Shown: piece by piece, positions 17,406-55,832 of the stretch
Layout: the number at the start of each line of letters is the position of its first letter
Numbering within the stretch: the stretch's first letter is position 1
NCBI GenBank assembly: GCA_903834835.1
Contig: CAILKO010000029.1
Location: 124,001-188,000 of the forward strand
Length of the DNA stretch: 64,000 bases
Origin: an uncultured Pseudomonadota bacterium
GTDB lineage: Bacteria > Pseudomonadota > Gammaproteobacteria > Burkholderiales > SG8-39
Reading direction: 5' to 3'
Made by a program: the position numbers and the translations under genes
The notes under the pieces: model-generated
What the model saw: the letters and a program-made list of their open reading frames with translations, nothing else
Told to the model about the DNA's origin: nothing
Databases searched by the model: none

Positions 17406-17483
17406 ATTCGCTCCGCTGGTAGGGTCTGTGCCACGCATGCAGCGCGGCGATCCGGCCGGCATTCTAGGGGAAAGAAATCGGCG

Positions 17484-17531
17484 CATCGATGCACCGATAG
17501 TAACCTAAACGTTACTATCGGTGCATCGATG
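17484..17531. promoter_or_regulatory. GTAAC-N6-GTTAC palindrome, copy A (21-bp arms)
   Basis: Two perfectly complementary 21-bp arms (17484-17504 and 17511-17531) flank the 6-nt loop CTAAAC. The core ATAGTAAC/GTTACTAT is shared with four other sites in the window, but the outer arm sequence is unique. The centre is about 102 bp upstream of the CoA-ligase TTG and 150 bp upstream of the small basic protein. No T-run follows, so it is not a standard intrinsic terminator. It may be a dimer-binding operator between divergent genes or a hairpin element. Confidence 0.75.
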
Positions 17532-17657: not shown

Positions 17658-17756
17658 ATGCCCAAGGGCGAACAGCGCAGCAACCGCGAAGCGAAGAAAC
17701 CCAAGAAGGCGCCCCCGCCCAAGGTTCCGGCCTCCGGACCGTCGAAGAAGTCTTAG
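17658..17756 (+). CDS. small basic protein, 32 residues (conserved KGEQRSNREAKKPKK type)
   Basis: The short frame begins at ATG 17658 behind GAGGAG (17646-17651). It encodes a Lys-, Arg- and Pro-rich peptide opening MPKGEQRSNREAKKPKK and ending SGPSKKS. Peptides of this kind occur widely as hypothetical proteins in proteobacteria, from memory. The high charge and lack of hydrophobic residues suggest an unstructured nucleic-acid- or ribosome-binding peptide, but no function is known to me. The frame also extends upstream without a better start. It diverges from the CoA ligase across palindrome A. Confidence 0.6.
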   Translation: MPKGEQRSNREAKKPKKAPPPKVPASGPSKKS

Positions 17757-25286: not shown

Positions 25287-26903
25287 ATGCTGAACCCCGG
25301 CAATCTCCTGACCCAGACCGCGCGGCGCCACCCGTCGCGCATCGGTCTCGTTCATGGCGCCCGGCGCTGGACCTGGGGCGAGCTCGAGCGCAGCGCAAAC
25401 GGGCTCGCGCGCGCGCTGGCGGCACTGGGCATCGAACGCGGCGATCGCGTCATCGTGCAGAGCCCGAACAGCCGCTGGATGCTGGAAGCGCAGTACGCGC
25501 TGCTGCGCGCCGGGGCGGTCTACATCCCGGTTCATGCGCGCGCCATCCCGCGCGAGACCGCGCAGATGGTCGGGCTCGCGGGGGCGAAGGCGCTCATCCT
25601 GCCGGCGGGCCTTGCGGCCAACGCGATCGAAGCCGAGGCGCAGTGCAGCACGCTGCAACACGTCATCGTCTGCTCGGACACGGGCGAGATCCCGCCGCAC
25701 ACGCCCGGACGCGCGCAGTGGCATGACTACGACAGGCTGGCGCGCGCGCACGCGGGCGAGACGCTTGCGCTCGAGGTCGCGCCGGACGACATCTGCCTGC
25801 AGATGTTCACCGCCGGCACGACCGGCGTGCCCAAGGGCGGCATGCACAGTAATCGCGGCTTCATGGCGGCGCTGACCGGACGCATCGCCGACGTGATGCC
25901 CGGCCTCGATATCGACTCGGCCCTGCTTGCGATCGGTCCGCTGTCGCATGGCACGGGCACGACTGCGACCTGTTGCGTGATGCGCGGCGCGAAGATCGTC
26001 ATGCTGGAGGGCCATTTCGATGTCGGCGCCTGCTGGCGTCTGATCGAAGCCGAACGTATCTCCGAGCTCTTCACGGTGCCGACCATCCTGATGGATCTCG
26101 TGCGTCATCCCGATGCCCAGCGGCGCGATCGGAGCAGCCTGCGGCATGTGGTCTATGCGGGTGCGCCGATCAACCGCACGGACCAGAAGCGCGCGCTTGA
26201 GCTGCTCGGGCCGGCGCTGGTGCAGTACTACGGTTCGGTGGAGAACATGGGCACGGCCAGCGTGCTGCATCCCTGGCAGCACTCGCTGCGGGAGGACGAT
26301 CCCGAGGCACCGGTCGGCACGGCGGGCGTCGCACGCTCGGGCGTGCGCATCGCGATCCGCGACGCGGACGGGCGTGATCTGCCGGCGGGCGAAACGGGGG
26401 AGATCTGGATCGATGGCCCGGGTAATTTCCTTGGCTACCAGAACATGCCCGAGGCGACCGCCGCCGCGCTCAAGGACGGCTGGGTGAGCTCGGGCGATCT
26501 CGGTCGGCTGGATGAGCGCGGCTTCCTGTACATCCAGGGACGCTCGCGCGAGATGTACAAATCCGGCGGACTGCAGGTCTATCCGAACGAGACCCAGAAT
26601 TATCTCGGGGAGCATCCGGCCATCGCCGAAGCGCATGTGCTCAGTCTGCCCGACAGCCGCTGGGGCGAGATCGGCGTGGCGGTGGTGCAGCTGAAAGCCG
26701 GCGCTGCGGCCACCGAGGCGGAACTGCGCGCCTTCCTGCGCACCAGGATGGCGGCCTACAAGCTGCCGCGCCGGGTCTGGATCTGGGACGAGATACCCCG
26801 GAGCCCGGTGGGCAAGGTGCCCAAGCCGCTGCTGAAGGCCGAACTGCTCGCACGCGGACTGGTGCGCGAGGGAGAGGATGTTCCCGGGGCAGATCAGGCA
26901 TAG
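25287..26903 (+). CDS. AMP-dependent acyl/aryl-CoA synthetase
   Basis: The 538-residue ANL enzyme shows the P-loop TAGTTGVPKGG, A5 motif YYGSVENMG, A7/A8 GWVSSGDLGRLDERG and GRSREMYKSGG, and the catalytic Lys region RSPVGKVPKP. It forms an acyl-CoA from a free acid, ATP and CoA. It lies between two alpha/beta hydrolase genes, suggesting a pathway in which an ester or ring product is hydrolysed and then activated. Its TAG stop (26901-26903) lies inside palindrome B. The substrate is not predictable from the sequence. Confidence 0.9.
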   Translation: MLNPGNLLTQTARRHPSRIGLVHGARRWTWGELERSANGLARALAALGIERGDRVIVQSPNSRWMLEAQYALLRAGAVYIPVHARAIPRETAQMVGLAGAKALILPAGLAANAIEAEAQCSTLQHVIVCSDTGEIPPHTPGRAQWHDYDRLARAHAGETLALEVAPDDICLQMFTAGTTGVPKGGMHSNRGFMAALTGRIADVMPGLDIDSALLAIGPLSHGTGTTATCCVMRGAKIVMLEGHFDVGACWRLIEAERISELFTVPTILMDLVRHPDAQRRDRSSLRHVVYAGAPINRTDQKRALELLGPALVQYYGSVENMGTASVLHPWQHSLREDDPEAPVGTAGVARSGVRIAIRDADGRDLPAGETGEIWIDGPGNFLGYQNMPEATAAALKDGWVSSGDLGRLDERGFLYIQGRSREMYKSGGLQVYPNETQNYLGEHPAIAEAHVLSLPDSRWGEIGVAVVQLKAGAAATEAELRAFLRTRMAAYKLPRRVWIWDEIPRSPVGKVPKPLLKAELLARGLVREGEDVPGADQA

Positions 26904-26929
26904 ATGGTAACGTATATGTTACTATCTAT
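26900..26929. promoter_or_regulatory. GTAAC-N6-GTTAC palindrome, copy B
   Basis: Twelve-base arms (26900-26911 and 26918-26929) are complementary except one G/T pair, around the spacer GTATAT. It carries the ATAG-type flanks seen in the other copies. The centre is about 111 bp upstream of ATG 27026, and the site includes the stop codon of the upstream ligase. It could be the operator of the hydrolase-GlcG transcript. There is no T-run. Confidence 0.72.
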
Positions 26930-36230: not shown

Positions 36231-36252
36231 TTGGTAACATATATGTTACTAA
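36231..36252. promoter_or_regulatory. GTAAC-N6-GTTAC palindrome, copy C
   Basis: The arms TTGGTAAC (36231-36238) and GTTACTAA (36245-36252) surround the spacer ATATAT. One G/T pair breaks perfect symmetry, at the same arm position as in copy B. The site is centred 114 bp upstream of the cupin start and 45-66 bp downstream of the MFS stop, both on the minus strand. It suits an operator for the cupin-Bug-Bug transcript. Confidence 0.7.
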
Positions 36253-37749: not shown

Positions 37750-38241
37750 ATGCCACCGGACGAATCCGAACTACGGCGCTTGCTGGACCAGATGGCGATT
37801 CGCGATCTGCATACGCGCTACTTCCAGGGTTGCGACAGGCTCAGTGCCGCGCAGATCCGCGCCTGCTTTGCCGAGGATATCGAAGCGCACTATCCCGGCG
37901 GGCGCCTGGTGCGGGGGCTGGACAAATTCATGGGCGTGATCTTCGGGCCGTATCTCGAGCGAGGTGGCCGCTACGAGAAGGTCAGCTCCAGCAGCCACTT
38001 CATGGGGAACCTGTGCTTCGATTCGCTGGAAGGCGATACCGCGCAGACTGAGACCTACGCGCTCATCTCGCACCTGCAGCACGGTGCAGACGAGATCTCG
38101 CTCCGGAACACCCGCTACGTGGACAGCCTGCGGCGCGACGGTACGGAATGGAAGATCTGCAAGCGCGTCGTGACGCTGGAGTGGACCTGCGTGGTGCCGG
38201 CAACTTTTGGGGTTGCGGGTACGCGCGGGCCAGATAAATAG
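37750..38241 (+). CDS. SnoaL-like domain protein
   Basis: The 163-residue protein has the NTF2-like SnoaL_4 pattern: LLDQMAIRDLHTRYFQGCDR, IRACFAEDIEAHYPGG, then SSHFMGNLCFDS and a C-terminal strand WKICKRVVTLEW. Members include aromatic dioxygenase small subunits, dehydratases and cyclases. ATG 37750 has GAGGAG upstream at about 9 nt. The TAG stop lies inside palindrome D. A catalytic role cannot be assigned. Confidence 0.8.
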   Translation: MPPDESELRRLLDQMAIRDLHTRYFQGCDRLSAAQIRACFAEDIEAHYPGGRLVRGLDKFMGVIFGPYLERGGRYEKVSSSSHFMGNLCFDSLEGDTAQTETYALISHLQHGADEISLRNTRYVDSLRRDGTEWKICKRVVTLEWTCVVPATFGVAGTRGPDK

Positions 38242-38259
38242 TAACTTCATTGTTACTAT
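38238..38259. promoter_or_regulatory. GTAAC-N6-GTTAC palindrome, copy D
   Basis: Eight-base arms ATAGTAAC (38238-38245) and GTTACTAT (38252-38259) flank TTCATT. Unlike the other copies it lies between the 3' ends of convergent genes: it overlaps the SnoaL-like stop and is 50 bp from the antitoxin stop. No start codon lies nearby, so a simple promoter operator is unlikely here. It weakens a pure operator model and supports a repeat or hairpin reading. Confidence 0.6.
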
Positions 38260-38308: not shown

Positions 38309-38605
38309 TCATGCCACCTTCTTCACCACCAGTCGCACCGCCAACCCGGCCCTTGAGGCGACATTGACCAGCGCGTCGAGGCTGAAGAGGTCGATTCGCC
38401 CCTTGAGCATGGCATTGAGCCGCGGCTGGGTCAGACCGAGCAGCTTCGCCGCAGCTGCCTGCGTCAATCCGCTGGCCTTCACCCAATCCTCGATCCGCAT
38501 CATCAGCGCGGAGCGCAGCCTGAGATTCTCTGCCTCGACCTTGTCGAAGCCGATGTCGCGGAAAATGTTCCCGCTGCTTCTTTCCATTTTCATCTTTTCG
38601 CTCAT
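38309..38605 (-). CDS. XRE/HigA-like antitoxin
   Basis: The 98-residue protein contains a helix-turn-helix: LTQAAAAKLLGLTQPRLNAML, preceded by an N-terminal helical part and followed by LFSLDALVNVASRAGL. This is typical of antitoxins paired with HigB/RelE-type toxins, which also repress their own operon. ATG 38605 overlaps the toxin stop (ATGA), giving coupled translation in toxin-first order. Palindrome D lies beyond its stop. Confidence 0.88.
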   Translation of the reverse strand: MSEKMKMERSSGNIFRDIGFDKVEAENLRLRSALMMRIEDWVKASGLTQAAAAKLLGLTQPRLNAMLKGRIDLFSLDALVNVASRAGLAVRLVVKKVA

Positions 38606-38931
38606 CGCCGTCTGCGCTCCTCGATCAACGCCCTGAACCTGCGCCGCGCGAGCTCGATATCGGATTGTGCGGTCTTTTCCGATTTCTTCTGGAAGGCGTG
38701 CAGCACGTACACCGCTTCCGCGAATCGGGCCAGGTACATGAGCCTGAACGCGTCGCCTGTCCACACCCGCATTTCCTTTACCCCAAGGCCGACGGAAGGC
38801 ATGGGCTTCCAGTCCGCCGGCTCGCGCCCGTCCTGAATCCTGTCCAGTTCGTGCCCCGCCACACGGCGGGCGTCTGCCGGGAAATCTCTTGCGCGTGCGC
38901 GACTGTCGCCCAACCACACAACGGGCTTCAC
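38602..38931 (-). CDS. HigB/RelE-like (phage-derived Gp49-like) toxin
   Basis: The 109-residue protein has the RelE-superfamily pattern: WLGDSRARARDFPADARRVAGHELDRIQ, then MPSVGLGVKEMRVWTGDAFRLMYLARF and YVLHAFQKKSEKT, matching the Gp49-like mRNA interferase family. Basic residues at the C-terminus (RRRFRALIEERRRR) fit ribosome or RNA binding. GTG 38931 is the likely start; a longer frame lacks a ribosome site. It is the first gene of the toxin-antitoxin operon. Confidence 0.87.
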   Translation of the reverse strand: MKPVVWLGDSRARARDFPADARRVAGHELDRIQDGREPADWKPMPSVGLGVKEMRVWTGDAFRLMYLARFAEAVYVLHAFQKKSEKTAQSDIELARRRFRALIEERRRR

Positions 38932-38935
38932 GAGA

Positions 38936-38955
38936 TTATCCCAGATTTGGTATAA
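38936..38955 (-). promoter_or_regulatory. putative toxin-antitoxin operator/-10 region
   Basis: On the minus strand the sequence TTATACC-AAATCT-GGGATAA forms an imperfect palindrome (six of seven arm positions match). It lies just before the toxin start and includes possible -10 elements (TTATAC or GATAAT). Antitoxins of the HTH type commonly bind such sites to autoregulate. The exact transcription start is not resolved. Confidence 0.5.
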
Positions 38956-39202
38956 GCGAAAAACGGCAGTGCCATGCACGTGACAACGCCTGCCCGCCGG
39001 GCCGGTTGACCGCACCCGAGCGTCGGCTCGATGGACGCGCTCAGGTGATCGAAGAACGCGTCCCGGCAGGCTCCCCAAACTGGCTGGAGGTTTCAAACTG
39101 GTTCGCAGACCGCGAAGTCCGGCACCCGGCCCCTCTGTTAAAGTACCTCTGGCCCAGCGCTTCCGTCAGGCTCGGCACCCTCGAAACTTCAGAGTCTCCC
39201 TC

Positions 39203-55700: not shown

Positions 55701-55733
55701 ACAGGCAGGGGGAGTGAAATCCGGCAGGGTCAT

Positions 55734-55765
55734 GCCAGATAGTAACGTATACGTTACTATCTGGC
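55734..55765. promoter_or_regulatory. GTAAC-N6-GTTAC palindrome, copy E (perfect 32 bp)
   Basis: Positions 55734-55749 and 55750-55765 are exact reverse complements; the centre reads GTAACGTATACGTTAC. It is the most symmetric copy and has unique outer sequence (GCCAG/CTGGC). The centre is 83 bp upstream of zapE and 50 bp downstream of lpdA. No T-run lies on either side. Confidence 0.8.
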
Positions 55766-55832
55766 TTCGAAAGCTGGATTAGCTTCCTCGGATGCTGCCT
55801 GCCCGGGCGCAATTTCTTCTCCCCGCCTAGAC

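What the first reader, a model, noticed from the sequence alone, without database searches (positions are those of the whole stretch)
17484..17531. Arms of the palindrome covary outside the core
Copy A has 21-bp perfect arms and copy E 16-bp perfect half-sites, yet their outer sequences differ (CGATGCACCG versus GCCAG) while staying complementary. A protein operator usually conserves sequence, not long variable complementarity. Preserved pairing with changing sequence suggests that the hairpin or cruciform itself matters, as in REP-like elements or RNA stems. Copies B and C both carry a G/T pair at the same arm position.
Basis: partly seen in the sequence, partly recalled or inferred. Interest (0 to 1): 0.55.

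Follow-up and report, generated by a model that had tools for sequence, protein, structure and literature searches.

The report
Evenly spaced antitoxin-operator-like palindromes genome-wide
One bacterial genome carries about 180 near-identical, evenly spaced DNA palindromes between its genes whose core matches the switch sequence of a common toxin-antitoxin gene pair, and it keeps an antitoxin-like gene with no toxin gene found beside it, which hints that an antitoxin may have become a chromosome-wide DNA-binding protein.

Summary
The palindrome and its covarying arms are real but part of something larger. The window's genome has 179 RGTAAC-N6-GTTACY sites; none of 397 other genomes in a phylum sample exceeds 7. 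In the two thirds of the genome that I fetched, 97 of 99 classifiable sites are intergenic, convergent gene pairs are favoured, and spacing is more even than chance (CV 0.60 against 0.94; 0 of 2000 simulations). Many have conserved outer boxes beginning 32-33 bp outside the core.

The core matches the operator of an HI1419/HI1420-like toxin-antitoxin module: 8 of 9 exact matches in other genomes lie just upstream of such a toxin ORF. The genome has one detected antitoxin homolog, no toxin hit beside it, and a site 44 bp upstream. All 15 detected copies of an IS30-like end lie 18-19 bp from a palindrome.

Arm covariation is significant at -2 to -9 only; 51 of 110 copies barely extend. I find no sign of an RNA stem (no strand bias); replication template switching or a DNA-level role fits better. 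No RAYT passed its cut-off.

Best reading: dispersed sites of a solitary antitoxin-derived protein, probably architectural. Binder and function are inferred.

The parts
17484..17531 (.). Copy A: core 17499-17516 (AGTAAC-N6-GTTACT) with 15 further complementary bases on each side; purine box GGGGAAAGAAATCGG at 17467-17481 on the left
   Evidence: the box position is read off the sequence
26906..26923 (.). Copy B: core GGTAAC-N6-GTTACT, 3 bp after the stop of the gene 25287-26903; arms extend 6 pairs
36233..36250 (.). Copy C: core GGTAAC-N6-GTTACT, arms extend 2 pairs, between co-directional minus-strand genes
38240..38257 (.). Copy D: core AGTAAC-N6-GTTACT at the end of gene 37750-38241, convergent with 38309-38605; arms extend 2 pairs
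55734..55765 (.). Copy E: core 55741-55758, 32-bp perfect palindrome; outer boxes GGGGGAGTGAAATCCGG at 55708-55724 and CTGGATTAGCTTCCTC at 55774-55789
   Evidence: box positions read off the sequence

Best explanation
The palindromes are dispersed binding sites of a solitary, antitoxin-derived helix-turn-helix protein. SHOWN by sequence: the 18-bp core equals the site found just upstream of HI1419-type toxin / HI1420-like antitoxin operons in other genomes; this genome has one detected homolog of that antitoxin, with no toxin hit in its 3.3-kb locus and with a copy of the site 44 bp upstream of its start; the genome carries 179 sites where sampled relatives carry few or none; sites are intergenic, biased to convergent pairs, evenly spaced, and many have a second conserved box on one or both sides; an IS30-like element ends 18-19 bp from 15 of them. 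INFERRED: the solitary protein binds the sites as a dimer and acts architecturally (anchor, insulator or supercoil barrier between transcription units about every 19 kb) rather than as a promoter repressor; an unknown partner or DNA shape uses the outer boxes; the long variable complementary arms come mostly from replication template switching seeded by the palindrome.
For: Copy number: 179 against at most 7 in 397 others; 133 against 1 in 97 family members for the strict form. All-or-none: 111 sites above 20 bits, 119 above 6 bits. Operator identity: 8 of 9 exact matches beside a toxin ORF; the two toxins scanned pass the TIGR02683 cut-off. Relatives: of 27 loci with homologs, 15 have a strict (12) or one-mismatch (3) site beside a toxin hit. 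Solitary homolog: E 2.8e-14, 38% identity, no toxin hit in its locus, site at L175:1857-1874, shared invariant residues K66 S67 R70 M71 G76 N77 P78. Placement: 40 convergent, 46 co-directional, 11 divergent, 2 genic, 12 at contig edges. Even spacing: CV 0.60 against 0.94 +/- 0.09. Outer boxes: 75% of 220 halves against 5% of random flanks (profile trained on the same halves); with free position 56 of 110 on each side, both 27, neither 25. No strand bias.
Against: No binding data. The homolog scores far below the TIGR02684 cut-off (18.4 against 53.7 bits). A site upstream of it could be chance, since some 5% of co-directional intergenic regions carry one (46 of 837), and that site matches the outer box on one side only (0.6 and 6.5 bits, threshold 2.9). 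Another relative (locus L185) has a 51%-identical homolog with neither toxin hit nor site in its locus, so being solitary does not by itself bring sites. The genome is 88.9% complete, so a toxin or a second binder may be missing; three sub-cut-off toxin hits exist. Outer boxes and long arms are not part of the known operator (3 of 40 halves; extensions 0 to 6). Fold comparison found no match at E 0.001 or better.
Confidence: 0.5

Rival explanations
1. A REP- or MITE-like repeat family that multiplied by transposition and only happens to carry an operator-like core; its placement reflects selection against insertions in genes and promoters, and its even spacing reflects target immunity.
For: High copy number in one genome only; intergenic and 3' bias; use as IS target, 15 of 15, as described for REPs in PMC1525189 (abstract).
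Against: Arms differ from copy to copy; no target-site duplication found; no RAYT above cut-off; the core recurs upstream of toxin ORFs elsewhere.
Confidence: 0.2
2. A bidirectional transcription terminator or other RNA hairpin at gene ends, with a conserved apex.
For: 3' and convergent placement; A and T tracts at the outer boxes; arms more complementary at convergent than co-directional sites (0.71 against 0.57, p 0.043, uncorrected).
Against: No GU excess over AC in transcribed orientation (19 against 24); equal sense and antisense energies and no T-tract orientation bias, 14 of 46 downstream against 19 of 46 mirror-upstream; T tract lies about 21 nt from the core and the bases between show no covariation; core recurs at promoters of TA operons elsewhere.
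Confidence: 0.12
3. An ordinary promoter regulon of the solitary antitoxin-like regulator.
For: Same core as the TA operator; a site upstream of the homolog.
Against: Only 11 of 97 intergenic sites lie between divergent genes, which hold 58 of 184 kb of intergenic DNA; no tail of weak sites; even spacing.
Confidence: 0.1
4. The DNA hairpin or cruciform itself is the functional object and arms are kept complementary by selection, with the operator-like core as its apex.
For: Covariation at -2 to -9 without strand preference; both sides changed yet complementary at -3, -4, -5, -6 in 28, 15, 28 and 23 of 110 copies.
Against: 51 of 110 copies extend 2 pairs or fewer; matching falls near chance after the first mismatch; the six central bases are conserved but do not covary.
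Confidence: 0.08

Closest known systems
Operator of HI1419/HI1420-type (RelE/HigB toxin with HigA-like antitoxin) modules
   Same: 18-bp core RGTAAC-N6-GTTACY; directly upstream of the toxin ORF in 8 of 9 exact matches and in 15 of 27 loci from relatives, one-mismatch forms included
   Different: 179 copies, mostly away from any such operon; outer boxes and long arms that operators elsewhere lack; placed at gene ends
REP / BIME elements
   Same: High-copy extragenic palindromes, 3' placement, IS targets (PMC1525189 abstract; PMC3733652 start of abstract in listing)
   Different: No RAYT above cut-off; variable outer stems; conserved core in the middle; no one-sided tag found in the symmetric profile
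Dispersed chromosome-binding sites of Noc, SlmA or MatP type
   Same: Many short palindromic sites for one sequence-specific protein over the chromosome (recalled; PMC4726725 start of abstract in listing)
   Different: Candidate binder is an antitoxin relative; sites restricted to intergenic DNA; macrodomain bias cannot be tested on contigs
Template-switch-homogenised inverted repeats
   Same: Contiguous complementary tracts anchored on an existing palindrome (PMC8794818 abstract; PMC8604942 start of abstract in listing)
   Different: No ancestral sequences here to show single events

Membership tests
HI1419/HI1420-type TA operator | Core RGTAAC-N6-GTTACY | tested here: met
   179 in the genome; same core at toxin ORFs elsewhere
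HI1419/HI1420-type TA operator | Next to a toxin gene that it controls | tested here: not met
   No TIGR02683 match over cut-off in the genome; three sub-cut-off hits, one of them at window 38641-38856 near copy D, which lies downstream of it
HI1419/HI1420-type TA operator | Bound by the antitoxin | not testable with these tools
   Needs EMSA or ChIP
REP element | Associated RAYT (Y1) transposase in the genome | tested here: not met
   PF01797 best hit 14.2 bits, cut-off 23; genome 88.9% complete
REP element | Extragenic, high copy, palindromic | tested here: met
   97 of 99 non-edge sites intergenic
REP element | GTAG or CGTC tag at one end (PMC3733652, listing only) | not tested
   No dedicated search; none stands out in the symmetric profile
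MITE | Target-site duplication | tested here: not met
   No direct repeat stands out; best of several thousand offset and length combinations is 7 against 1.25 expected
Intrinsic terminator | Stem followed directly by an oriented U tract | tested here: not met
   T tract about 21 bp from the core, 14 of 46 downstream against 19 of 46 mirror-upstream
Structured RNA | GU tolerated over AC in the transcribed strand | tested here: not met
   19 GU and 24 AC in 46 co-directional sites
Noc/SlmA/MatP-type site array | Many sites of one motif across the chromosome | tested here: met
Noc/SlmA/MatP-type site array | Bound by a protein acting on nucleoid or division | not testable with these tools
   No binding or cell data
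IS30 family (the adjacent element) | IS30-type transposase | tested here: inconclusive
   Only ends are in the fetched contigs; 5 of 8 listed plasmid hits, each covering 22-39% of the query, are annotated IS30 transposase

The most novel reading that the evidence does not exclude
An antitoxin that lost its toxin partner was domesticated into a chromosome-wide architectural protein with about 180 evenly spaced two-part sites at transcription-unit ends. The searches made listed no paper on such a system.
Probability: 0.35. Interest if true: 0.85.

Novelty: new variant of a known kind. Interest (0 to 1): 0.68.

Why it matters
If right, it shows how an addiction module can become part of chromosome organisation, in a lineage with about 180 evenly spaced sites that sampled relatives lack. 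It also cautions that covarying palindrome arms, usually read as proof of a functional hairpin, may be left by replication template switching around a protein-binding site.

Tried and rejected
Considered and rejected or demoted: RNA stem or terminator; REP with RAYT; MITE with target duplication; single-copy uptake signal (AGTAAC has 8 matches in the window, each inside a palindrome). Led nowhere: viral contigs (20 stretches; flanks printed, not followed); solved-structure sequence search (2 weak unrelated matches); Foldseek (nothing at E 0.001 or better; designed proteins rank first, HTH proteins such as HipB, C.EcoT38IS and HigA2 follow weakly); text search for the core letters (0 papers). 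The antitoxins of L142 and L137 match no Pfam or NCBIfam model at 0.001.

The pile-up of sites near contig ends first looked like an assembly effect of the palindrome; it proved to be a shared IS30-like end. Limits: gene calls come from my own codon-score script; copy A's co-directional label ignores a 32-aa ORF at 17658-17756; the 110 copies include 11 at contig edges, some with IS sequence as outer flank, and one edge copy (C35:22) was dropped for lack of flank; site and box profiles were trained on copies they then scored; arm shuffles ignore any relatedness of copies.

Full report
Observation. Copy A (17484-17531) has 21-nt perfect arms and copy E (55734-55765) 16-nt arms; five copies lie in the window and none in 100 shuffles. 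The window is C29:124001-188000 of a genome of 3.37 Mb, 74 contigs and 88.9% completeness. That genome holds 133 exact AGTAAC-N6-GTTACT (reversed control 0); of 97 family members one holds a single copy. With RGTAAC-N6-GTTACY it holds 179 (control 2), and none of 397 other genomes of a phylum sample exceeds 7. GTAACRTWWAYGTTAC occurs 88 times in it and once in one of 299 other genomes of an order sample.

Anatomy. A profile scan of the fetched contigs (about 2.06 Mb) gave 111 sites above 20 bits and 119 above 6 bits; a shuffled version gave 5 above 6 bits and none above 10, so the family is nearly all-or-none. The core is flanked by a partly conserved ATAGAT/ATCTAT and its six central bases are R-T-W-W-A-Y. 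A purine box, roughly GRGGAGGAAAATNCGG, starts 32-33 bp outside the core. With free position it passes a 5% threshold in 56 of 110 left and 56 of 110 right flanks, both in 27, neither in 25; in fixed register 75% of 220 halves pass, a figure helped by training on the same halves.

Covariation. On 110 copies complementarity exceeds the composition expectation at -2 to -9 (z 2.9 to 6.3), weakly at -10 and -11 (z 1.6), and not beyond, nor in the centre. 44 of 110 copies extend 6 or more pairs (5.2 expected) and 14 extend 10 or more (0.2 expected), but 51 extend 2 or fewer. The signal is in exact register. After the first mismatch the match rate is 0.40 against 0.36 +/- 0.016 near the core, a small excess, and 0.30 against 0.29 farther out. 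Contiguous tracts anchored on the core fit template switching, which can create and repair stems (PMC8794818, abstract and start of introduction). In 46 co-directional sites GU and AC mismatches number 19 and 24, sense and antisense energies do not differ, and T tracts have no orientation bias. I see no RNA-level selection.

Placement. By my own gene calls, 40 sites lie between convergent, 46 between co-directional and 11 between divergent genes, 2 in genes and 12 at contig edges; intergenic DNA is 18 kb convergent, 107 kb co-directional and 58 kb divergent. On eight contigs 78 gaps average 18.8 kb with CV 0.60, against 0.94 +/- 0.09 for class-matched random intergenic placement; one gap is under 3 kb (10.6 expected); none of 2000 simulations is as even. 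Arms are somewhat more complementary at convergent than at co-directional sites (0.71 against 0.57, p 0.043, uncorrected).

Identity of the core. The 22-bp consensus ATAGTAACRTWWAYGTTACTAT has 9 matching stretches in genome contigs, where records near the window's own may be left out. The eight whole genomes then searched hold 1 or 2 RGTAAC-N6-GTTACY each, no more than their controls suggest. In 8 of 9 stretches (not L141) an HI1419-like toxin ORF starts beside the site; in L138 its frame looks broken. The two toxins scanned pass the TIGR02683 cut-off; the others are judged by eye. An antitoxin-like ORF follows in seven. In the family, 22 of 97 relatives have a homolog of the solitary protein at E 0.001. 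Of 27 loci from them, 12 have a strict RGTAAC-N6-GTTACY and 3 a one-mismatch form, each with a toxin hit beside it; 12 have neither form, among them L182/L201 (one place, 48% identity), L185 (51%, also without toxin hit) and L190 (cut by the contig start), the rest being weaker matches. Operators elsewhere lack long arms (21 sites, extensions 0 to 6) and outer boxes (3 of 40 halves).

The candidate binder. The genome has one homolog of the L142 antitoxin at E up to 10 (E 2.8e-14, 38% identity): 106 aa at L175:1492-1812, no toxin hit in its locus, a site at L175:1857-1874, 44 bp upstream of its start. It shares the invariant K66 S67 R70 M71 G76 N77 P78 with toxin-paired antitoxins. Its TIGR02684 score, 18.4 bits, is far below the cut-off of 53.7. 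The toxin family gives three sub-cut-off hits in the genome: a 66-aa frame on C46, window 38641-38856, and a weak one on C57. A related antitoxin (L140) is predicted as all-helical with mean pLDDT 85.7; Foldseek gives no match at E 0.001 or better, so the fold test is inconclusive. A HigA antitoxin bends DNA (PMC7340258, start of abstract in listing).

Mobile element. Fifteen places share one end sequence of 97-139 bp, and 15 of 15 have a palindrome 18-19 bp away. The plasmid matches are short (22-39% of the query in the 8 rows listed), and 5 of those 8 are annotated IS30-family transposase. REPs as IS targets are described in PMC1525189 (abstract). IS30's liking for palindromic targets is recalled, not tested.

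Conclusion. The arms do covary near the core, but the element is best read as a dispersed DNA site whose core is a toxin-antitoxin operator, in a genome with a solitary antitoxin-like gene. My confidence that the core is operator-derived is about 0.85, that the solitary protein binds the sites about 0.6, and that the role is architectural about 0.4. The paper searches made listed no such system.

Noticed in passing
C35:280002-358372 of G000: Six successive dyads with nearly equal gaps of 15.5, 15.5, 15.3, 15.6 and 16.5 kb.
   Followed up: partly
L024:1-60 (C35 start): A contig begins with a 60-bp perfect palindrome around GGTAACATATATGTTACC; a fold-back assembly artefact is possible.
   Followed up: no
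window 38309-38979, minus strand: A RelE-like toxin ORF (TIGR02683, 25 bits, below cut-off) followed by a 98-aa ORF, next to palindrome copy D.
   Followed up: partly
Starts of C71 and C74, end of C62; start of C46 and C68, end of C55: Two further families of shared contig ends, probably other insertion sequences; the C71 copy also ends about 50 bp from a palindrome.
   Followed up: no
C46:46911-47042 of G000 (L204): A 66-aa frame matching only the C-terminal half of the HI1419-type toxin family, possibly a toxin remnant.
   Followed up: partly
Sites overlapping stop codons, for example copy B (3 bp after a stop), copy D and C72:17401: Several dyads begin within a few bases of, or supply, the stop codon of the neighbouring gene.
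   Followed up: no
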